From contig ONCF01000019.1 of the NCBI GenBank assembly GCA_900316275.1, positions 1 to 32,440 on the forward strand: a stretch of DNA of 32,440 nt, given 5' to 3'. How positions within the stretch are numbered: the first letter of the stretch is position 1; each line of letters begins with the position of its first letter. This document shows positions 12,896 to 26,057 of the stretch, piece by piece. The notes below the pieces were generated by a model, which saw only the letters and a program-made list of their open reading frames with translations, was not told the origin of the DNA and made no database searches. This DNA is from an uncultured Veillonellaceae bacterium. Lineage in GTDB: Bacteria; Bacillota; Negativicutes; Selenomonadales; Selenomonadaceae. The position numbers and the translations under genes are program-made.

Positions 12896-14833
12896 CTAGG
12901 CGAGCTTGATGGCCGTCTGGCCGCCGAACTGCACGATGACGCCCTCGGGCTGCTCCTTGTCGATGATGTTCAGCACATCCTCCGGCGTGAGTGGCTCGAA
13001 ATACAGACGGTCGGAGATATCGAAGTCCGTCGAGACCGTCTCCGGGTTGTTGTTGATGATGATGGCCTCGATGCCCATTTCTCTGAGCGCCCAGACCGAG
13101 TGCACGGAGCAGTAGTCGAACTCCACGCCCTGACCGATGCGGATAGGACCGGAGCCGAGCACGATGACCTTGCGCTTGTGCGAGACCTCGACCTCATCCT
13201 CCTGCGCGTGGAACGTCGAGTAGTAGTACGGCGTCGCGGCCTCAAACTCAGCGGCACAGGTATCGACCATCTTGTATTTCGGCAGGATACCGTCCGTCTT
13301 GCGCATGGTGCGGATTTCGTCCGCCGTCTTGTGCGTGACCTCAGCGATGGAGACGTCGGCGAGGCCCACGTCCTTGGCCGCGAGCAGCAGGCTCGGCGTC
13401 AGTGGCTCACTGGCGAGACGCTGCTCCACATCCGTGATGTTCTTGATTTTGCGCAGGAACCAGAAATCGATTTTCGTGATGTCGTGGATTTCCTCGAGCG
13501 TCGCACAGTTACGGCGCAGGGCCTCCGCGATGACGAACAGGCGCTCGTCGTTGATACGGCTGAGGTTGCGCTTGACCTTCGCGTCGTCCCAGGCGTCCAT
13601 CTTTTCCATATGCAGGCGGTGCACGCCGATTTCCAGCGAGCGCACGGCCTTTAAAAGCGCACCCTCGAAATTGCGGTCGATGCTCATGACCTCGCCCGTA
13701 GCCTTCATCTGCGTGCCGAGCGTGCGGTCGGCGTAGACGAATTTATCGAACGGCCAGCGGGGGAATTTCACGACGCAATAGTCGAGCGCCGGTTCGAAGC
13801 AGGCCTTCGTCTTCTGCGTGACGGCGTTGGTAATTTCATCAAGCGTGTAGCCGATGGCGATTTTCGCCGAGACCTTAGCGATGGGATAGCCCGTCGCTTT
13901 GGACGCGAGCGCCGACGAGCGGCTCACGCGCGGGTTGACCTCGATAACGTAGTATTTGTTGCTGTTAGGGTCGAGCGCGTACTGCGCGTTGCAGCCGCCC
14001 TCGATGCCGAGCTCGCGGATGATGCGCAGGCTCGCGGAGCGCAGCATCTGGTACTCGTGGTCCGTCAGCGTCTGGCTCGGCGCCACGACGACGGAGTCGC
14101 CCGTATGCACGCCCACAGGGTCGATATTTTCCATATTGCAGACGGTGATGCAGTTGTCATTGCCGTCGCGCATGACCTCGTATTCGATTTCCTTCCAGCC
14201 CGCGACACTGCGCTCGATGAGCACCTGGCCGATCATGGAGTAGTTCAGCCCCTTGATGACCGTGTCGACGAGCTCCTCCTCGTTCTCGGCGATGCCGCCG
14301 CCCGTGCCGCCCATCGTATAGGCGGGGCGCACGATGACCGGATAGCCGATTTCGTCCGCAAAGGCCACGGCCGACGGCACATCCTCGACGATGGTGCTCT
14401 CGGGGATGGGCTCGCCGAGCTTTTGCATGGTCTCCTTGAACATCTCGCGGTCCTCGGCGCGCTCAATGGCCTTGAGCGGCGTACCCAGGAGCTCGACGTG
14501 GTATTTTTCCAACACACCGTTTTCCGCGAGCTGTACGGCGAGGTTCAGGCCGGCCTGGCCGCCGAGCGTCGCCAGCAGGCCGTCCGGGCGCTCCTTGGCG
14601 ATAATCTCCGCCACGAACTCCTCCGTCAGCGGCTCGATGTACACGCGGTCAGCGATATGCGTATCTGTCATGATGGTCGCGGGGTTCGAGTTCACGAGCA
14701 CGACCTCGAGGCCTTCCTCTTTCAACGCACGGCAGGCCTGCGAGCCCGCATAGTCGAACTCCGCCGCCTGGCCGATGATAATCGGGCCTGAGCCGATGAC
14801 CATGACTTTTTTCAGGTTTTCCTTCTTTGGCAC
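12896..14833 (-). CDS. carB: carB 5' fragment (645 codons before the amber stop)
   Basis: This part holds the whole first synthetase half, which forms carboxyphosphate and carbamate (ATP-grasp sequence [20 protein letters not shown]), the oligomerisation region (about 400-550), and only the first 90 or so residues of the second half. Natural two-gene CarB systems, as in Aquifex and methanogens, are split between the halves near residue 550, so this product is unlikely to be a functional split subunit. Confidence 0.8.
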
Positions 14834-18470: not shown

Positions 18471-18518
18471 GTGTCCTCTTTCTCCATGTTTTTGTGCGAT
18501 ACCCCGCATCTCATCGCA
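18471..18518 (-). pseudogene. Decayed fragment of an Rpn-type nuclease gene
   Basis: About 47 bases on the minus strand resemble the internal part of the neighbouring Rpn gene at about 19190-19147: both share GAGATGC, then TATC, AACATGGAGAAA and AGGACACTT in the same order, with a few substitutions and two small indels. It begins at the end of the intact gene (overlapping its last codons) and stops at the pyr -35 box. It is best read as the scar of a second copy. Confidence 0.6.
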
Positions 18519-19428
18519 ACGTAGGCAGATTACGTGACCGCAAAAAATCATTGATTTTGTCCGCAGGCCATTCTACCAGGTCCGAAACTTCCTCCAACGA
18601 TTTTCCTTTTTGGCTCATGCGTATAATCATATTTTGCTTTTCTTCCACACGGCCTTCTTCACGGCCTTCTTCACGGCCTTCTTCACGGCCTTCTTCACGG
18701 CCTTCTTCACGGCTGCCGATAATGTCGCTGTTATAGTCCCAGATGGCTGACTCCCGCTGCAAATACTCTCTGTAGGCGGTCTCGTCCATCAGATAGCGCT
18801 CCGAAGCATCCATGGCTTCGGCGATTTCGGGATTCAGCATGGCCAGTTCCTCCTTTTCCTGTTGATTGAGCTTATTCGCAAAGTATGCCAGCCAGCGCTC
18901 CATGCGCGTCATTTCCTTGACCGGTTTGGCTTGGTATTTCGGTATCTCAAGGAAATCAAGCTCCAAATCGTTGCTCAACTTATGCTGGTGCTTCACATCA
19001 TAGACAAAGAATTGTGAGAACGGGTCTGACGTGGGCAAAAACGGAAACCGCAAGATGTTGATGGCAATGGCCGGCTTCAGCTGCCGATAAGGCTGTCCCT
19101 TGCGCAACGCATCAAAGTGCAGGTACATCTGTGACCAATAGAAAAGTGTCCTTTTCTCCATGTTCTTATGGTTGATAACCTGCATCTCAATGTCCATGCG
19201 CGTACCGTCCTGCAGCACGCCGAACACATCAAGCCGCCCGAGCTTCTCGTCCTGCTTCTCCGGCGCAAACTCCACGTTGCGGAAACCAATATCCGTAAAA
19301 GCGTCCTTGCCTTCACGCCCGGTTGTATCATTGATGAAATTCAACGTGATGTTTTTGCGTTCCTCGCGCCCGAACACGAACTTGAACAACAGATCGTTCG
19401 TAGGGTCATACGGTCTTTTCTCCGACAC
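18511..19428 (-). CDS. Rpn-family recombination-promoting nuclease / putative transposase
   Basis: A 305-residue protein of the Rpn (PD-(D/E)XK, formerly transposase_31-like) family, whose studied members are DNA endonucleases that promote RecA-independent recombination. The N-terminus PYDPTNDLLFKFVFG is the family hallmark. The nuclease core is visible as GRLDVFGVLQDGTRMDIEMQ, with Asp and the ExQ residues expected to bind metal. The tail holds five EEGR units (about residues 239-260) encoded by perfect 12-bp repeats, then a short helical end. GTG 19428 follows GAGGAGA. It has its own promoter, and family members usually occur in many copies per genome. It is not flanked by terminal inverted repeats that I can see. 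Confidence 0.88.
   Translation of the reverse strand: MSEKRPYDPTNDLLFKFVFGREERKNITLNFINDTTGREGKDAFTDIGFRNVEFAPEKQDEKLGRLDVFGVLQDGTRMDIEMQVINHKNMEKRTLFYWSQMYLHFDALRKGQPYRQLKPAIAINILRFPFLPTSDPFSQFFVYDVKHQHKLSNDLELDFLEIPKYQAKPVKEMTRMERWLAYFANKLNQQEKEELAMLNPEIAEAMDASERYLMDETAYREYLQRESAIWDYNSDIIGSREEGREEGREEGREEGREEGRVEEKQNMIIRMSQKGKSLEEVSDLVEWPADKINDFLRSRNLPTLR
18650..18709. repeat. Five perfect 12-bp tandem repeats inside the Rpn gene
   Basis: The plus-strand unit CGGCCTTCTTCA occurs five times without error from 18650 to 18709 and encodes EEGR on the minus strand. The unit length is a multiple of three, so slippage would add or remove four residues without breaking the frame. Confidence 0.95.
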
Positions 19429-19552: not shown

Positions 19553-21625
19553 TTACGCCGTGCGCAAACGTTGCTTCATCTCAACCCGCAGTTTTGCCAG
19601 CCGCAGGCCTTCGCGGATAATGTCAGCGTAGGTGCCATGCATACGTGCTTGATCACATTGAATCTTTTGGCAGAGTAGTCTCGCCGGTATATGGCCTTCC
19701 TCTACTGGATGTTTTAGCCACGCGAGCGCGCGGTTGATGTCTCGCGGCATAATCTTGCCGTGTGCATAGCAAATACCCAGCGCATACTGCGCATCGATAT
19801 CGTCATCATCCATAGCGGCTGCCCAAATGCTTTGTCCTTCAGGAAAAACATATTGCAGATACTCGCGTTCCGACGCGAAAGTTTTCCACGGAGGGGGCGC
19901 AACGCAACGCGGATACTTCGCCTCGAACAGGATAGCCAAAGAAGAATAGTAGCCATAAGCGTTGCCGCCCTTCACAATTTTGGCGACATCTTCGCGCCGG
20001 AATTTGAACAATAGTCCTTCGGTTGGTAACTTGGCAATCTGCCATTTATCTGCTGCCGCAACATCCACAGGATTGAGGAAATTCCCCGCTACTTCGATTT
20101 GGCAGAGATTGATCCATTTGCTGCATGCCAGCAAATCATCTCCCGAAAGTCTCAGGTTGTAAGGCCCGTAAGCTTGATGCAAATGATGTTCTACATCCAG
20201 TTCGAGACAGATGACATAGTTCCCAGCCCTTGTCGCCGTCATGATGATAGATTCCCCAGTCATGGCCTTATCCCGATAAGATGCCACACAGTTATTCATC
20301 CGACGTCCGATTACTGTGAGATCATGCGTCTGCCTCGCGAGGCGGAACGCGTAATCACCAATCTGATATTCCAGGGCATAGTCTTCTGTTTTGTAAAGCA
20401 AAATGTAGTTATGCATGTCCGGCTGCAACTCGAGGACGGCTTCGCTGATAAGGTCATGGACTTCTCGCGTCAGTCCACGTCGCAAGAGCATTCTCCGCAC
20501 AGATTTCGGCAGAGCTGTTTCATAGCGTTCGAGTTGCGACAGTGTGTCAGACGTTTCCTGGTTGATGCCTTTTTTCGCAAAACGATAGAGTTCGTTCACC
20601 ATCGCGCGCTGACTCTTGTGCGCTTCAAGCCAACGCAGGTAGTACTCGACCGACGACCAAGCGATGCGAGCAACATTTTTTCGAGAGATAATGACCTTAC
20701 CTTTCCATAATTTGGCATCGGCGAACGGGATGCCGGCGATGCTTTGGTCAAACTGGTAAAATTTCTGGATGAGATTCAAATCTTCCACACCATATCCCCT
20801 GAGCAGCACATGCCAAATGATGGCATACGGATTTTTCGCATAGGCGCGGCGCAAACTGTGCGTCGGGTGAATGGCCAGATACGCACAAAGCGGATGAAAG
20901 TTATCCTTCTGCTCACGCGGAAACAATTTCGCGTAGTCTTTGCCGATGAAATGCTGCAACGCAGTCACATTCCAGTCAAATGGGTGCGCTATATAGGCGA
21001 AAACAGCCTCTTTGCCCTGCAACGGCCAGGTGATAGTCGGCCGAATACCGCACCAGGCTTTTGTGTTGTCCCTGAGTGCTTCCACTACGATAGCCGAGAT
21101 ATTCGCTGGTAAGTCAACATCCGTCTGCTCTGTCCATACGCCGCGTTCGTTGCCGTATCCCGTGTGGGATATGACAGAGACACCACGCTCCATCGCCACG
21201 TTGATAGAGAACGTCTCATAATAAAATCGCGCGCCGTAACGGTCCTGCTGGACATGGGCGACATCTACCGCCAGGAAGACAGGAGCTGATGGAGTGCTTT
21301 GGAAAATCCGCCAGCGCATTGGCACGATTTGTGGTTTCCACCAATCATACTGCCGGATAAAGCTGTGCCCAAAGCCCACTATGTCCACTTGCTCGCGCGC
21401 CCATGCAAAAACCTCTTGATTCTCTGCCTCCGTCCTAACATTGAAGTCAACGACATCATTTTCATGATAACGGTAAAATTTGAACCAATGTTGATCCCTA
21501 TCGTCATCGCAGGCGATAAAAAGTGCACAGTTCAACCTTTCCAGGCCCTCATGTGCCAGATGGTCATCCAGGCATTCCACCCATGAACCGTCCACGCCTG
21601 TCTGTACGAATGCCTTATCCAGCAT
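19553..21625 (-). CDS. PcfJ-like protein with C-terminal Sel1-type repeat (paralogue A)
   Basis: A 690-residue protein of unknown function. Residues about 425-520 match the PcfJ-like pattern known from conjugative plasmids: GDYAFRLARQTHDL, then GRRMNNCVASY (Cys446), a beta-rich stretch ending ICLELDVEHHLHQAYGPYN, resembling the family's cysteine/SY and QxxGxxN core. Near 600-645 one Sel1-like tetratricopeptide unit is seen (DAQYALGICYAHGKIMPRDINRALAWL is split by its two helices). The N-terminal 190 residues are unrecognised. ATG 21625 follows GGGAGGCGG. It lies 18 bases after paralogue B and shares with it the block KDNFHPLCAYLAIHP...SLRRAY and the MNNC block, so the two arose by duplication. 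No signal peptide or membrane helix is visible. Function and partners are not known to me. Confidence 0.75.
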   Translation of the reverse strand: MLDKAFVQTGVDGSWVECLDDHLAHEGLERLNCALFIACDDDRDQHWFKFYRYHENDVVDFNVRTEAENQEVFAWAREQVDIVGFGHSFIRQYDWWKPQIVPMRWRIFQSTPSAPVFLAVDVAHVQQDRYGARFYYETFSINVAMERGVSVISHTGYGNERGVWTEQTDVDLPANISAIVVEALRDNTKAWCGIRPTITWPLQGKEAVFAYIAHPFDWNVTALQHFIGKDYAKLFPREQKDNFHPLCAYLAIHPTHSLRRAYAKNPYAIIWHVLLRGYGVEDLNLIQKFYQFDQSIAGIPFADAKLWKGKVIISRKNVARIAWSSVEYYLRWLEAHKSQRAMVNELYRFAKKGINQETSDTLSQLERYETALPKSVRRMLLRRGLTREVHDLISEAVLELQPDMHNYILLYKTEDYALEYQIGDYAFRLARQTHDLTVIGRRMNNCVASYRDKAMTGESIIMTATRAGNYVICLELDVEHHLHQAYGPYNLRLSGDDLLACSKWINLCQIEVAGNFLNPVDVAAADKWQIAKLPTEGLLFKFRREDVAKIVKGGNAYGYYSSLAILFEAKYPRCVAPPPWKTFASEREYLQYVFPEGQSIWAAAMDDDDIDAQYALGICYAHGKIMPRDINRALAWLKHPVEEGHIPARLLCQKIQCDQARMHGTYADIIREGLRLAKLRVEMKQRLRTA

Positions 21626-21643
21626 CGCGAGCCGCCTCCCTTC

Positions 21644-23821
21644 TTACGCATCAGCCAGAGCCCCTAACATATGGTCAAGTTCTTCCTGCGTAACATAATG
21701 GGCCTCATGCGTGCGCAAGATTGTCTTGTATTTGGAAACACCGGTTGCCTGTGTACGCTCTTTCCACTTTTGCGCCATCGTCGCATCTTCGGGAAAAATG
21801 CCGCAGGGCTCACCAAAGAGATAGTACATGCCCCACATTGCTTCGCCGTTGCCCGCCTCCGCAGCATCGAGCACACGCAAGAGAATCGGGCAGACGCGGC
21901 GCAGTTCTCTGCGCTCGTCACGAACTTCGCACGCGTGATCTGCCAGTACATATTTTTGACGGACAGATTCATCCATGGCGATAGACGTGGCAAATTTTGT
22001 CAGAAATGCTGGGATACAGCCAGCGCCTGCGTCGGAGGGAACCCTCTTTGCCAAGGTCTCCATGTCATACAGCCAGAAATTTTCTTCGTTAACAGACGCC
22101 GCTGCAACAGTATCCGTATCCTGCCACACATCACTGAAAGCCTCTCCAGCATGATTTTCCAGCACCATCAAACGCATCCAGGTGCGAACAGACTGCAGGA
22201 CATCGCCTTGCAGTTGATGATTATGCGGGCCCAACGCCTGCAACACCTGGACGCCGCGCACTTCGATGCAGGCACATGTATGTCCGTCTTTCTGTACGTA
22301 GAGTAGCGTGCAATCTTTTTGCAATGCTGTTTTCATGTAGCTGGCGATACAGTTATTCATTTCCCGCCCTACTTGTAACATGACATCTGTATTGGGTATG
22401 AGGCGAAAGGCATAGTCGCCGATGTCACATTCGAGCCAACTTTCTTCCTGCGTGTAGCGGATTTTGTGATGGCTATACTTCATGCAGTTCAGTTCCGTCA
22501 CCATCTGCGCATGTACGGAGTCTGCAAAGCCATATTTGGTAAAGGCGTCCTTCACTTCAGCGGAAAATTTCGCTCCGTACTGCTCCATAATTGAACACAT
22601 GTCGTCGCACCAGCGGTCCCAGCCGTCCTGCGCCAACTTCGCCAAATAGCGTGCCGTCCACGCCTCGCCACGGCGGCTCAGGAAAAATTGTACCATCCCG
22701 TAGAGCCGTTCCCAGGCAGCATAGTCGCGACGGTCCCCGTTGAGCGACATCATGCCATTCAATAGCATGTCAATTTCTGCCTGCGTGATCCTATCGCCGT
22801 GCCCAGACGACGGCTCCTTTTCTTGTGGTGTTTCTATCGGTTCAGCTGGTGGTTCCTGCTCAGCAGCGAGGAATGGAAAACTGTAGCAGGTATATGACGT
22901 ACCTCCTTCCCACCAAGCGCAATGTTCCGAAAAATCGATATTGCCGATACGCGGATTGACTAACAATACCCGCATATGGTTATAATCGCGAAAGCCCAAC
23001 TCCAGCAGCGCCCGATACTCAATAAGTGCCAGCGGATTTTGCTGATAGAGCCGACGCAAACTTTTGGGCGGACGGATACCGAGATGCTGGCAGAACGGAT
23101 GAAAATTGTCCGTACTTGTCACAGGGAAATTCTTGTCGAAATCCTTGAAATAAGGGCGCAACAACGCACTATTGAGGTCAAGCGGACGCTCGGCAAACGC
23201 ATGTAGTTTATCCCGCCCCGTCAAGCCAGAAAGCGTAGATGGGCGTATGCCGAATTGTTTTTCCGCATCGTCTTTGAGCGCCTCTATCACGGCATCGGCC
23301 ACAGTAGCCGGTATCTTATTGTCGTCAACAGAACGGCTCGTATGCTGATATTCCTTGCCCAGTTCCAAGGGGTCATTATAAATGGAAAACTTCTTCAACA
23401 ATGGCTCATATGGATAGGGCTCCACATATGGCGCGGGACGCGTGCGCAGTTCCAGGAACTCTGTGCCCAGAATCAACGGATGCTCCGCATCACGGCGATA
23501 AAGCCACCACCGCGCGGGCAGGCTGACGGGCTGCTTCAGCTTGAGCACGTCCTGTGGAGGCAGTTTTCTCGCCCGCGCGGGGATGGTGTACTCCACGCAA
23601 ATGCCATGCAACATACAGCCAGGCTCTGTCTGCACCTCCGTCAAGGCAAACGCAGTCACAGCCTCATACGTATGATGACGTGCGCACCAGGCCAGCGAGC
23701 CATCGCCATTGTGAATGATAAGCACCAGCGGGACGCGCTCGATGTCAATTCGATTCAGTGCAGCCTCCTCGCAAAGCTGCCACTCTGCAGGCTGCACGCA
23801 ATGCACGAAATACTGCTCCAT
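21644..23821 (-). CDS. PcfJ-like protein with C-terminal Sel1-type segment (paralogue B)
   Basis: A 725-residue relative of the following gene. Shared blocks are TDNFHPFCQHLGIRP...SLRRLYQQNP (about residues 245-275) and the PcfJ-like core GDYAFRLIPNTD, GREMNNCIASY (Met488-Cys491), ACIEVRGVQVLQALGPHN. A Sel1-like segment (GNGEAMWGMYYLFGE) is near 650-690. A Pro/Glu-rich linker (about 318-340) leads into RITQAEIDMLLNGM (344-357), and the C-terminus has VTQEELDHMLGAL (710-722); both resemble the short helix at the N-terminus of FliM that binds CheY, though this may be chance. ATG 23821 follows GGGAGGCGATGT; an open frame 28 codons longer has no ribosome site. First gene of a two-gene operon, divergent from hsdS-hsdM. 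Confidence 0.72.
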   Translation of the reverse strand: MEQYFVHCVQPAEWQLCEEAALNRIDIERVPLVLIIHNGDGSLAWCARHHTYEAVTAFALTEVQTEPGCMLHGICVEYTIPARARKLPPQDVLKLKQPVSLPARWWLYRRDAEHPLILGTEFLELRTRPAPYVEPYPYEPLLKKFSIYNDPLELGKEYQHTSRSVDDNKIPATVADAVIEALKDDAEKQFGIRPSTLSGLTGRDKLHAFAERPLDLNSALLRPYFKDFDKNFPVTSTDNFHPFCQHLGIRPPKSLRRLYQQNPLALIEYRALLELGFRDYNHMRVLLVNPRIGNIDFSEHCAWWEGGTSYTCYSFPFLAAEQEPPAEPIETPQEKEPSSGHGDRITQAEIDMLLNGMMSLNGDRRDYAAWERLYGMVQFFLSRRGEAWTARYLAKLAQDGWDRWCDDMCSIMEQYGAKFSAEVKDAFTKYGFADSVHAQMVTELNCMKYSHHKIRYTQEESWLECDIGDYAFRLIPNTDVMLQVGREMNNCIASYMKTALQKDCTLLYVQKDGHTCACIEVRGVQVLQALGPHNHQLQGDVLQSVRTWMRLMVLENHAGEAFSDVWQDTDTVAAASVNEENFWLYDMETLAKRVPSDAGAGCIPAFLTKFATSIAMDESVRQKYVLADHACEVRDERRELRRVCPILLRVLDAAEAGNGEAMWGMYYLFGEPCGIFPEDATMAQKWKERTQATGVSKYKTILRTHEAHYVTQEELDHMLGALADA

Positions 23822-23934
23822 ATTACATCGCCTCCCTTGCAGTGTATATGCCTCATATATCATCAGCACCAATGGTCGTAGTTCCCATTGTGCCATTGCA
23901 AGCATGTGTAAGATGTAATTAACACTATGTACTC

Positions 23935-23963
23935 TTGACAGTTATAAAACATCGACGTAACAT
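23935..23963 (+). promoter_or_regulatory. Promoter of the hsdS-hsdM pair
   Basis: Perfect -35 TTGACA (23935-23940), 17 bases, and TAACAT (23958-23963, four of six matches). A 6-bp inverted repeat, TACATT (23983-23988) and AATGTA (23993-23998), falls in the leader about 15 bases after the expected start and could be an operator or a small RNA hairpin. Confidence 0.6.
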
Positions 23964-24021
23964 GATGGTAACGAATCATCTTTACATTAAGCAATGTACA
24001 CTGAATTGGGAGGGATGTCAA

Positions 24022-24597
24022 GTGGTTTTCTTGGGCGATATTGCCGAAATTGTCGGCGGGAAAAATGGGTACCGCGCACGCATGGAAGGGCAGCAGGTTC
24101 TTTATACCAAAGCTGACTTCGACGACGACTATTACCATATGAAATTGTCGGCTGATAGCCGCACCATCATCTATTATCAGACGCCGCCGGCCAGTGAGGA
24201 CTCAGCGCTCCCGTCGGTGCGTGCGGCGCTGCTGTCCGAGACCAACCGGGGCAAGGTGATTTATCAGGCGTTTGCTGAGATTCGGCTGGTACGTGAGGAC
24301 GTACATCCGCTGTATCTCTGCTATCTCTTAAACTGCTCACAGGCCGTCGAGCGCCAGCGGCAGATGCTGAACCAGGGCAGCGTCATCACGCGGATGTTCA
24401 CCGGCATCTTGAAAGATATGCAGATTGAACTGCCCAGCCTCGACACGCAGGCGCAAATCGGTACAGTCTACGCGACGGCAGTATATCAGGCATACCTCGA
24501 AACACAGCAGGCTAGACATACGCTGCAAGGCGTCATCTCCCTCCTGCGCCGACTGGAGCCAGACGGCTCGGAGAAACAGGAGGTGCTGACGAAATGA
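24022..24597 (+). CDS. Half-length HsdS-like specificity protein (single recognition domain)
   Basis: A 191-residue protein with one target recognition domain and one conserved helical region, about half of a normal HsdS (about 400). Visible are VVFLGDIAEIVGGKNGYRA at the start, YLCYLLNCSQAVERQRQML and GSVITRMFTGILKDMQIELP at the end of the domain, and then PSLDTQAQIGTVY with a long helix ending ISLLRRLE. Half-HsdS proteins are known to dimerise to reproduce the two-domain arrangement. GTG 24022 is preceded by GGGAGGG; the open frame reaches further upstream, into the promoter. Its TGA overlaps the ATG of the HsdM-like gene as ATGA. The order S before M and the absence of an hsdR gene are unusual for a type I restriction locus. 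DNA recognition is inferred. Confidence 0.75.
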   Translation: MVFLGDIAEIVGGKNGYRARMEGQQVLYTKADFDDDYYHMKLSADSRTIIYYQTPPASEDSALPSVRAALLSETNRGKVIYQAFAEIRLVREDVHPLYLCYLLNCSQAVERQRQMLNQGSVITRMFTGILKDMQIELPSLDTQAQIGTVYATAVYQAYLETQQARHTLQGVISLLRRLEPDGSEKQEVLTK

Positions 24598-26057
24598 TGC
24601 AACAAGCGAAAACCGCATGGGAACGTGCGCTGGAGTCTGCCATTCAGTCCGCGCGGAAACTCTGCGACGTGACGGTCTGCCGGGATGTCGCGCTTGCCCT
24701 CATCGCGTACAAATTGCTCTCGGACGTTCATGCCGCCCATTTAAAGCGCGACTGGACGTTTCCGTTGATGCTGAACCGGGCCAGCGACGGCTTTTTAACG
24801 ACAGATGACCTCAGCCAAACGCTGCAGGAGGTTTCCCACGCCATTCCACAGGTCGAGGATATCTTTGCTGACATGACCGAACGCCTGTCAGCACTGGCAG
24901 TGTCGGAGGACAAGCGGGAGGACGTGCTGAAAATCCTCTTTGAGGCGATTGCACCGTTTGACTTTGCCAAGATAGACCCCGCCGAACGCGGCGCGGCTTA
25001 TGCACGGCAGATAGAAAAGCTTGCCAAGTGCCGCAAGGCTCCCCTCTCGGTCACGCCTGCGGCCGTTTCGGAGCTCATCGCCGCCATTGTCACGCATGGC
25101 AAACGTGATACTGAGGCAGTCAGTATCTACGACCCAACGCTGGGCTCAGCTTCCTTACTTTTAAAAACAGGTGCATGCTTCCCAGACACAACCGCCGTAA
25201 ATTACTACGGGCAGGAAAACGACCAACATACCCTGTGCATCGCACGCTGGAACTGCCTGCTGCACGGCATTGCGCCGGAGGCTGCACATCTCACCGAGGG
25301 CGACACGCTGGCCGAGGACTGGTTCAGCCATGCAACTCTGGATTTGGCGTACGATATCATGGTCATGCAGCCACCGTACGGCGCGCGCTGGGCTGCCGAA
25401 CAGTATCTCCTCTATGATCCGCGCTTCGCTGCTGTCGGTGTGCTGCCGCCGCGCACACATGCAGACAACGCCTTTTTGCTGCATGGTCTCTATCAACTAA
25501 AAGAAGACGGCATAATGGCCATTATCCTGCCACACGGCGTCCTGTTTCGTGGCGGGCCTGATGGCAAGATTCGCCAATATCTCATCGAGAACGGCCTGAT
25601 TGCCGCCGTCATTGGGCTGCCAGCCAATCTGTTCTATGACAGCAAGATTCCCTGTGCCCTGCTGATTTTGCAAAAGCACCGCCCCAGCAAGGACATCCTC
25701 GTCATCGACGCCAGCAAGGAATACGCGCAGGATGGCCGACAAAACATCCTCACGCCGCAAAATACACAGCGTATTGTACAAGCTTACCTGCGGCGCGAAG
25801 ACGAACCACATTTCTGCCACCTTGCGACAATTGAGGAAATCCGCACCAACGACTATAATCTCAACATCCCGCGTTACGTTGACACGTTCGAGCCCGAGCC
25901 AGAATGTGATTTCCCGGCGCTTACCAAGGAAATGGCCACGCGTCGCCAGCAAATCGTTGCCAATAAAAATGAGCTGCTGCGGGCAATGCAGCAACTCACT
26001 CCAAGCGACGAAGATACGATGCGGATGATACAAGTATTTCAGAAGATAATAAAGTGA
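24594..26057 (+). CDS. HsdM-like DNA methyltransferase subunit with altered catalytic motifs
   Basis: A 487-residue relative of type I N6-adenine methyltransferase subunits. The N-terminal helical domain (RDVALALIAYKLLSDVHAAH) is as in HsdM, and the core is convincing: THADNAFLLHGLYQLKEDGI, AIILPHGVLFRGGPDGKIR, VIGLPANLFYDSKIPCALLI. However, three key motifs differ from the family. Motif X, usually FYTP, is S152-V-T-P. Motif I, usually DP-x-(C/M)-GSGS, is D180-PTLGSAS. Motif IV, usually NPPY/F, is Q259-PPYG, replacing the residue that contacts the target adenine amino group. Methylation may therefore be lost, although a DNA-binding complex with the half-HsdS could persist. It is translationally coupled to that gene and ends 54 bases before the convergent cheB-like gene. 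Confidence 0.85.
   Translation: MMQQAKTAWERALESAIQSARKLCDVTVCRDVALALIAYKLLSDVHAAHLKRDWTFPLMLNRASDGFLTTDDLSQTLQEVSHAIPQVEDIFADMTERLSALAVSEDKREDVLKILFEAIAPFDFAKIDPAERGAAYARQIEKLAKCRKAPLSVTPAAVSELIAAIVTHGKRDTEAVSIYDPTLGSASLLLKTGACFPDTTAVNYYGQENDQHTLCIARWNCLLHGIAPEAAHLTEGDTLAEDWFSHATLDLAYDIMVMQPPYGARWAAEQYLLYDPRFAAVGVLPPRTHADNAFLLHGLYQLKEDGIMAIILPHGVLFRGGPDGKIRQYLIENGLIAAVIGLPANLFYDSKIPCALLILQKHRPSKDILVIDASKEYAQDGRQNILTPQNTQRIVQAYLRREDEPHFCHLATIEEIRTNDYNLNIPRYVDTFEPEPECDFPALTKEMATRRQQIVANKNELLRAMQQLTPSDEDTMRMIQVFQKIIK

What the first reader, a model, noticed from the sequence alone, without database searches (positions are those of the whole stretch)
19553..26057. Candidate undescribed module: tandem PcfJ-like/Sel1 paralogues divergent from a degenerate HsdS/HsdM pair
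Two large duplicated PcfJ-like proteins and a catalytically altered methylase pair share a 200-base divergent promoter region, between core genes, next to an Rpn nuclease. The set looks like an accessory island. PcfJ-like proteins are known from conjugative elements without a clear function. A role in defence, plasmid control or DNA sensing is possible but rests only on proximity.
Basis: inference. Interest (0 to 1): 0.75.

Follow-up and report, generated by a model that had tools for sequence, protein, structure and literature searches.

The report
Collapsed remnant of a defence-like island
Four genes that look like a new module sit side by side because a stretch of about 7 kb was lost from a larger gene island, known here from one other rumen bacterium, that joins a DNA restriction system to a chaperone-type gene cassette; the four survivors look intact, but what they do is unknown.

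Summary
In detail: two tandem PcfJ-like genes (19553-21625 and 21644-23821, minus strand) face a half-length HsdS and a motif-degenerate HsdM across exactly 200 bases. As a self-contained four-gene module it is not supported. Among 189 family genomes, 50 carry PcfJ-like genes, and only the window genome and one from another genus (RUG102) carry them beside hsd genes. RUG102 has 72-84% identical orthologues of all four, inside a larger island: a complete type I restriction system plus the half-HsdS/HsdM-like pair, divergent from small ORF-Hsp70-AAA+-560-aa protein-membrane protein-PcfJ-PcfJ. The window's intergenic region joins that island's divergent promoter (homology ends at 23914) to the tail of the membrane-protein gene, marking a deletion of about 7 kb. 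The HsdM-like protein has lost SAM and catalytic motifs that 31-32 of 32 canonical relatives keep: probably a pseudo-methyltransferase. The PcfJ core is predicted to have a GNAT-like fold (all 50 best structural hits) without the usual acetyl-CoA loop. Most likely this is a collapsed island: a PcfJ pair, once part of a chaperone-linked conflict cassette, now under the promoter that drove that cassette, beside a non-catalytic DNA-binding pair. The history is well supported; the function is inferred.

The parts
19553..21625 (-). PcfJ-like protein A (690 aa): long N-terminal region, GNAT-like PcfJ core (about residues 412-528), C-terminal Sel1/TPR-like helices (about 535-689)
   Evidence: PF14284 34.6 bits; AF2 model pLDDT 79.8; Sel1/TPR and GNAT structural matches; dN/dS against RUG102 0.066
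21644..23821 (-). PcfJ-like protein B (725 aa from MEQYF; the open frame reaches 23905)
   Evidence: PF14284 33.7 bits; 72-73% identical to the RUG102 orthologue from this start; dN/dS 0.10
23841..23913 (-). Deletion scar: 3' tail of the upstream 405-aa membrane-protein gene (LTHACNGTMGTTTIGADDI*, stop codon 23855-23853) fused to the promoter region
   Evidence: Matches the C-terminus of RUG102's 405-aa gene, ending at its stop; 0 of 5000 shuffles reach the score, 1 of 1606 control pieces of the window does
23914..24021 (.). Conserved 108-bp divergent promoter region: TTGACA-17-TAACAT rightward (23935-23963) and TTGACA-17-TACATT leftward (24021-23993)
   Evidence: Aligned with RUG102 up to 23914 and no further; promoter scan
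23983..23998 (.). Perfect palindrome TACATT-N4-AATGTA overlapping the leftward -10; candidate operator
   Evidence: Also in RUG102 at the matching place; the only copy in each of the two genomes
24022..24597 (+). Half-length HsdS (191 aa, one target recognition domain, GTG start)
   Evidence: PF01420; 84% identical to RUG102; distant half-HsdS in G180 and G045 beside complete type I operons
24594..26057 (+). HsdM-like pseudo-methyltransferase (487 aa): APLSVTP for xGEFYTP, GSA for GSG, QPPY for NPPY (codons 25368-25379)
   Evidence: Motif table against 32 canonical HsdM; codon CAG against AAT in RUG102; dN/dS 0.16
18511..19428 (-). Rpn/PDDEXK_2 family protein next to PcfJ-A; neighbour, membership of the block uncertain
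   Evidence: PF12784 E=1e-50; 6 matches to the family in this genome

Best explanation
The block is a collapsed accessory island. Its more complete form, seen in RUG102 (uncultured Veillonellaceae), has a type I restriction-modification system extended by a half-HsdS/HsdM-like pair on one side of a divergent promoter, and on the other side an operon of small ORF - Hsp70 - AAA+ ATPase - 560-aa protein (Hsp70-associated by gene neighbourhood) - membrane protein - PcfJ-B - PcfJ-A. In the window lineage about 7 kb of the right-hand operon was deleted, so PcfJ-B and PcfJ-A now stand directly behind the promoter that drove the chaperone cassette; HsdR, the catalytic HsdM and the full HsdS of the left-hand operon are absent. 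Shown: the two arrangements, the junction, shared degeneration of HsdM motifs, purifying selection averaged over the whole divergence. Inferred: (a) the HsdM-like/half-HsdS pair works as a site-specific DNA-binding complex that does not methylate, for instance as a competitor or regulator of the restriction system or of this promoter; (b) the PcfJ proteins, with a GNAT-like core and Sel1-type protein-binding repeats, are effectors or adaptors that in the full island act on or with the Hsp70 cassette in a defence or conflict system. In the window they either act alone or are on the way out.
For: Orthologues of all four genes in one RUG102 contig. Complete type I M862-S429-R1031 next to the pair there. 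Hsp70 E=6e-56 and AAA E=1e-31 in the RUG102 operon; the same small ORF-Hsp70-AAA-560 cassette on Polaromonas, Aeromonas and Vibrio plasmids, next to BREX-2 and Zorya in one and in a Tn7-like neighbourhood in another. Junction: promoter homology stops at 23914 and the 405-aa gene tail with its stop starts there. The 560-aa protein is absent from the window genome and no close HsdR or HsdM is present. Motifs X and I lost in both lineages, IV in the window, while the motif X phenylalanine and motif IV residues matter for activity in PacII (PMC9613975). dN/dS 0.07-0.16. GNAT-like fold: core model pLDDT 86, pTM 0.80; all top 50 Foldseek and all 50 VIA rows are acetyltransferases. A second PcfJ pair lies next to Hsp70, Hsp70-vWA, DO-GTPase2 and GAP1-N2 genes in G160, the components of a published conflict-system theme (PMC7159879).
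Against: Only one complete-type island is known, so direction and age rest on two genomes. The scar is short (about 20 residues) and moderately diverged. dN/dS averages the whole divergence and cannot show selection since the deletion. Synonymous divergence is higher in the PcfJ genes (pS 0.68-0.73) than in the hsd genes (0.49-0.57), so the two halves may have partly separate histories. Most PcfJ-like genes in the family have no Hsp70 neighbour in the loci read. PADLOC has no model for PcfJ, Hsp70 or the 560-aa protein. No activity was tested. The GNAT match has modest scores (Foldseek best E 0.013, Z up to 7.6).
Confidence: 0.55

Rival explanations
1. A coherent four-gene module: the PcfJ pair and the half-HsdS/HsdM-like pair act together in defence or DNA sensing under one shared regulatory region.
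For: Close orthologues of all four occur together in two genera and were found nowhere else in 189 genomes; the 108-bp divergent region with a private palindrome is conserved; all four are under purifying selection over the divergence.
Against: In RUG102 the PcfJ genes belong to a different operon 7.4 kb away; PcfJ-like genes elsewhere in the family lack hsd neighbours; the adjacency is made by a deletion.
Confidence: 0.15
2. Non-functional debris: what is left of a decaying island, with open frames kept only by recent age.
For: Loss of the cassette, HsdR, HsdM and full HsdS; an additional catalytic-motif loss in the window (QPPY, two base changes); a 218-aa remnant of PcfJ-A in a same-genus genome.
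Against: Four long intact frames, conserved promoter hexamers and palindrome, dN/dS 0.07-0.16.
Confidence: 0.22
3. The compact form is ancestral and RUG102 gained the Hsp70 cassette by insertion between promoter and PcfJ-B.
For: Only two genomes; the cassette without PcfJ exists elsewhere, so it can move.
Against: The window carries what looks like the tail of the cassette's last gene, with its stop codon, upstream of PcfJ-B.
Confidence: 0.06
4. The PcfJ genes are remains of a conjugative or plasmid element, unrelated to defence.
For: The family is named after a gene of a conjugative plasmid (general knowledge); one relative sits on the Selenomonas plasmid pSRC1; the RUG102 contig has a resolvase-like ORF and a single-strand-binding-protein-like ORF (read by eye).
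Against: No conjugation gene noticed in the window; most family members sit in ordinary chromosomal settings; no match among phage records.
Confidence: 0.1

Closest known systems
PcfJ family (Pfam PF14284; PHROGs phrog_16315 and others)
   Same: Both proteins score above the Pfam cut-off and keep the N-C-x-A-S-Y, C-I/L-E, Q-A and N motif residues; phage PcfJ-like proteins are the best matches among viral models
   Different: Much longer (690-753 aa), with an extra N-terminal region and, in A, C-terminal Sel1-like repeats; this long form was found only in this bacterial family in a 380-genome class survey
GNAT acetyltransferase superfamily
   Same: Predicted fold of the PcfJ core, order b-a-a-b-b-b-a; all top 50 structural matches
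   Different: The usual acetyl-CoA loop Q/R-x-x-G-x-G/A is replaced by N-x-x-L-x-G-D; no acetyl-CoA binding shown
Type I DNA methyltransferase (HsdM2HsdS; EcoR124; PacII M1M2S)
   Same: N6_Mtase fold family, 3lkd E=1.5e-92, EcoR124 M E=3.6e-55, PacII M about 1e-40; S with a target recognition domain; half-length S proteins can form an active symmetrical enzyme (engineered EcoR124INT, PMC2877798)
   Different: Motifs X, I and IV degenerate; HsdS is half length; no HsdR, full HsdS or catalytic HsdM beside it
GAP1-N2/Hsp70 conflict systems (Kaur et al. 2020, PMC7159879)
   Same: A PcfJ pair in G160 lies next to Hsp70, DO-GTPase2 and GAP1-N2 genes; the RUG102 island has Hsp70 with a weakly GrpE-like small protein family
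   Different: The window has none of these; RUG102 has an AAA+ protein and no GTPase was seen; PcfJ is not mentioned in that paper

Membership tests
PcfJ family PF14284 | Profile score above curated cut-off | tested here: met
   34.6 and 33.7 bits against 25
PcfJ family PF14284 | Conserved core residues N-C, Y, E, Q, N | tested here: met
   Present in both window proteins; lost in several other tandem copies of the bacterial family
GNAT superfamily | GNAT fold | tested here: inconclusive
   Predicted core model, all 50 top Foldseek and VIA rows GNAT, but E at best 0.013 and Z at most 7.6
GNAT superfamily | Acetyl-CoA loop Q/R-x-x-G-x-G/A between b4 and a3 | tested here: not met
   Alignment A4 shows N-x-x-L-x-G-D at that place (with the secondary structure)
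Type I methyltransferase HsdM | N6_Mtase domain | tested here: met
   E=3.6e-80
Type I methyltransferase HsdM | Motif X (xGEFYTP), I (GSG) and IV (NPPY/F) | tested here: not met
   APLSVTP, GSA, QPPY; 31, 31 and 32 of 32 relatives keep them
Type I methyltransferase HsdM | NCBIfam hsdM equivalog cut-off (TIGR00497) | tested here: not met
   235.9 bits against 242.75
Type I HsdS | Two target recognition domains in one chain | tested here: not met
   One domain, 191 aa
Type I restriction-modification system | HsdR gene in the locus | tested here: not met
   None in the window; the only HsdR-like match in the genome is a distant one on contig C69 (21% identity over 743 aa)
Hsp70-linked conflict system | Hsp70 and its partners in the locus | tested here: not met
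   Absent from the window; present in RUG102 and, with other partners, in G160
Catalogued anti-phage systems (PADLOC) | Match to a system model | tested here: inconclusive
   M and S match type I models only; PcfJ, Hsp70 and the 560-aa protein match none

The most novel reading that the evidence does not exclude
PcfJ-Sel1 proteins are a new class of effector or adaptor, built on a GNAT-like core, that couples to Hsp70/AAA+ chaperone cassettes in bacterial conflict systems; a pseudo-methyltransferase with a half-HsdS serves as the DNA-sensing or regulatory partner of such an island, and both pairs can persist after the chaperone cassette is lost.
Probability: 0.13. Interest if true: 0.75.

Novelty: new variant of a known kind. 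Interest (0 to 1): 0.45.

Why it matters
PcfJ is a family found on phages, plasmids and in chromosomes for which the held literature describes no function. A GNAT-like core gives a concrete, testable hypothesis for the family, and the RUG102 island gives it a genetic context with an Hsp70/AAA+ cassette that also sits near known defence systems on plasmids. The case also shows how a deletion can create an apparent new module with a shared divergent promoter, a caution for neighbourhood-based discovery. The methyltransferase that lost its motifs yet stays conserved together with a half-length specificity subunit raises a testable question about non-catalytic type I complexes.

Tried and rejected
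Viral contigs: a scan with the PcfJ alignment found no relative, and phage records gave no match to PcfJ-B. Plasmids: only one distant PcfJ relative. A scan of named genomes returned only 7 loci, of which one (RUG102) has both paralogues. Same insertion site in the genus: pyrB and cheB orthologues are far apart in G183, so an empty site could not be shown. Nucleotide comparison of the scar alone was not above shuffles; the protein-level comparison was. Rpn as part of the module: it adjoins PcfJ genes in the window, G003 and (as a remnant) G183, but the family has 6 to 14 matches in most of the genomes checked, so adjacency is weak evidence. Co-occurrence of PcfJ and any HsdM per genome is raised (23 of 50 against 33 of 139, Fisher p=0.004) but not corrected for relatedness, and the genes are not adjacent except in two genomes. 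CoCoNuT systems (Hsp70-like domains in type IV restriction) were read and not adopted: no McrBC-like gene was seen here. Literature searches for PcfJ found no functional study.
Full report
What is there. The four genes are at the stated coordinates. PcfJ-A (19553-21625, minus, 690 aa) and PcfJ-B (minus, open frame 21644-23905, likely start 23821) match Pfam PcfJ PF14284 above cut-off and each other at 26% identity. On the plus strand follow a half-length HsdS (24022-24597) and an HsdM-like protein (24594-26057). The gap between the two likely starts is exactly 200 bases.

Do the genes belong together? In 189 genomes of the family, PcfJ-B finds relatives in 50 genomes (E<=1e-5), PcfJ-A in 47 (E<=1e-8) and the HsdM-like protein in 56, nearly all of them ordinary HsdM (E<=1e-30). 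Only G000 (the window) and G175 have PcfJ and HsdM on one contig within about 20 kb; elsewhere they lie on different contigs or hundreds of kb apart (contig breaks limit this). A wider survey of 380 genomes of the class found the long PcfJ-like form only in this family. In the loci read, PcfJ-like genes sit alone (G129, G158, G142, G004) or in other tandem pairs (G136, G151, G166, G160, G185), without hsd genes. Close orthologues of the HsdM-like gene (72%) and of the half-HsdS (84%) exist only in G175.

The RUG102 island. G175 is the record of an uncultured Veillonellaceae bacterium, RUG102. Its 32-kb contig reads: HsdR (1031 aa), full HsdS (429 aa), HsdM (862 aa), HsdM-like (486 aa), half-HsdS, then divergently a small ORF (start 16917), Hsp70 (831 aa), AAA+ ATPase (470 aa), a 560-aa protein, a 405-aa protein with a probable membrane segment, PcfJ-B, PcfJ-A and a zinc-ribbon protein. 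The small ORF-Hsp70-AAA-560 cassette is also on plasmids of Polaromonas (next to BREX-2 and Zorya genes), Aeromonas (behind Tn7-like transposition genes) and Vibrio; the small proteins align, and one is weakly GrpE-like (E=0.057). The 560-aa protein has no match in the window genome.

The junction. From the hsdS side, window and RUG102 align through a 108-bp region up to 23914 and then stop. On the other side, directly beyond 23914, one frame of the window reads LTHACNGTMGTTTIGADDI followed by a stop, matching the end of RUG102's 405-aa gene (...NGNTTTTSIDADEI, stop). The score beats all 5000 shuffles and all but 1 of 1606 other window pieces. Then follows the shared PcfJ-B start. The simplest reading is one deletion of about 7 kb. 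The conserved 108 bp hold two promoter-like sites, one in each direction, and a perfect palindrome TACATT-N4-AATGTA over the leftward -10, found once in each of the two genomes. In RUG102 the matching promoter faces the Hsp70 operon; in the window it faces PcfJ-B.

The methylase pair. Among 32 canonical HsdM proteins of the family, 31 keep [AG]GEFYTP, 31 keep GSG and 32 keep NPPY. RUG102's HsdM-like has APVSVTP, GSA, NPPY; the window's has APLSVTP, GSA, QPPY. In the PacII enzyme, mutation of the phenylalanine of motif X, or of N together with Y or F of motif IV, impairs methylation (PMC9613975). The shared loss of motifs X and I predates the split of the two lineages, and the N-to-Q change is added in the window by two or more base changes. 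Pairwise dN/dS is 0.16 for M, 0.11 for S, 0.10 for PcfJ-B and 0.066 for PcfJ-A, so the proteins were constrained over most of their divergence. That a non-catalytic M can be kept as a partner or competitor is inference. Half-HsdS proteins also stand beside complete type I operons in G180 and G045. The genome has another, distant type I HsdR with a specificity-like gene on contig C69.

The PcfJ proteins. A model of PcfJ-A (pLDDT 79.8) and one of its core alone (residues 384-535, pLDDT 86.3, pTM 0.80) were searched against solved structures. For the core, all 50 Foldseek rows shown (best E 0.013, probabilities up to 0.96) and all 50 VIA rows shown (Z up to 7.6, 113 residues) are acetyltransferases of the GNAT kind. 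With the full model the C-terminal part matches Sel1 and TPR proteins (Z up to 8.1; profile E=2.7e-27 to Sel1 proteins). The scores are modest and a shared fold shows no function, but the agreement of every row is telling. The loop that binds acetyl-CoA in GNATs is replaced by N-x-x-L-x-G-D, while N, C, Y, C, E, Q, N and W are invariant in the core alignment. In pairs of G136, G151 and G166 the first copy has lost the N-C motif and the second keeps it; in G160 and G185 both copies have lost it; in the window and RUG102 both copies keep it.

Link to chaperone systems. Besides RUG102, the PcfJ pair of G160 follows Hsp70, Hsp70-vWA, a gene resembling the 560-aa protein (by eye), DO-GTPase2 and GAP1-N2/GAP1-M genes. 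Kaur et al. describe a theme of GAP1-N2 neighbourhoods with Hsp70, GrpE and DnaJ (PMC7159879); PcfJ is not in that paper. This makes a role of PcfJ as effector or adaptor of Hsp70-linked conflict systems plausible, but two or three loci among some fifty are thin evidence.

Verdict. The finding is a true observation with a partly wrong interpretation. The four-gene block is best read as a collapsed form of a larger island. History: about 0.8 likely. The pseudo-enzyme reading of the HsdM-like protein: about 0.75. GNAT-like fold of the PcfJ core: about 0.75. A role of the PcfJ pair with Hsp70 cassettes in conflict: about 0.3.

Noticed in passing
window 12896-12898: carB (large subunit of carbamoyl phosphate synthase) is interrupted by a single in-frame TAG; two same-genus genomes have one open frame of 1075-1076 aa. 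Sequencing error or true nonsense codon not decided.
   Followed up: partly
window 18648-18713: Perfect 12-bp tandem repeat (5.5 copies) encoding EEGR repeats in the Rpn/PDDEXK_2 protein.
   Followed up: no
L095 1058-3058 (G183 contig C20): Repeated peptide VDRRIGGLE in several small ORFs, which looks like a CRISPR array read as protein, some 6 kb from the PcfJ-A remnant.
   Followed up: no
L095 9497-10383: PcfJ-A remnant next to an Rpn remnant in a same-genus genome, same order as in the window.
   Followed up: partly
window against L091/L092: Synonymous divergence from RUG102 is lower in hsdS and hsdM (pS 0.49, 0.57) than in PcfJ-B and PcfJ-A (0.68, 0.73), which hints at separate histories or recombination.
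   Followed up: no
L144 5597-11632, L143 2702-10626, L146 4799-11482: Conserved small ORF-Hsp70-AAA+-560-aa cassette on proteobacterial plasmids, near BREX-2/Zorya or Tn7-like genes, without a PADLOC match for its RUG102 Hsp70 and 560-aa members; a candidate defence cassette in its own right.
   Followed up: partly
L101 4407-8223, L147 7047-10896, L148 6783-10591: Other tandem PcfJ pairs in which the first copy has lost the conserved N-C motif and the second keeps it.
   Followed up: partly
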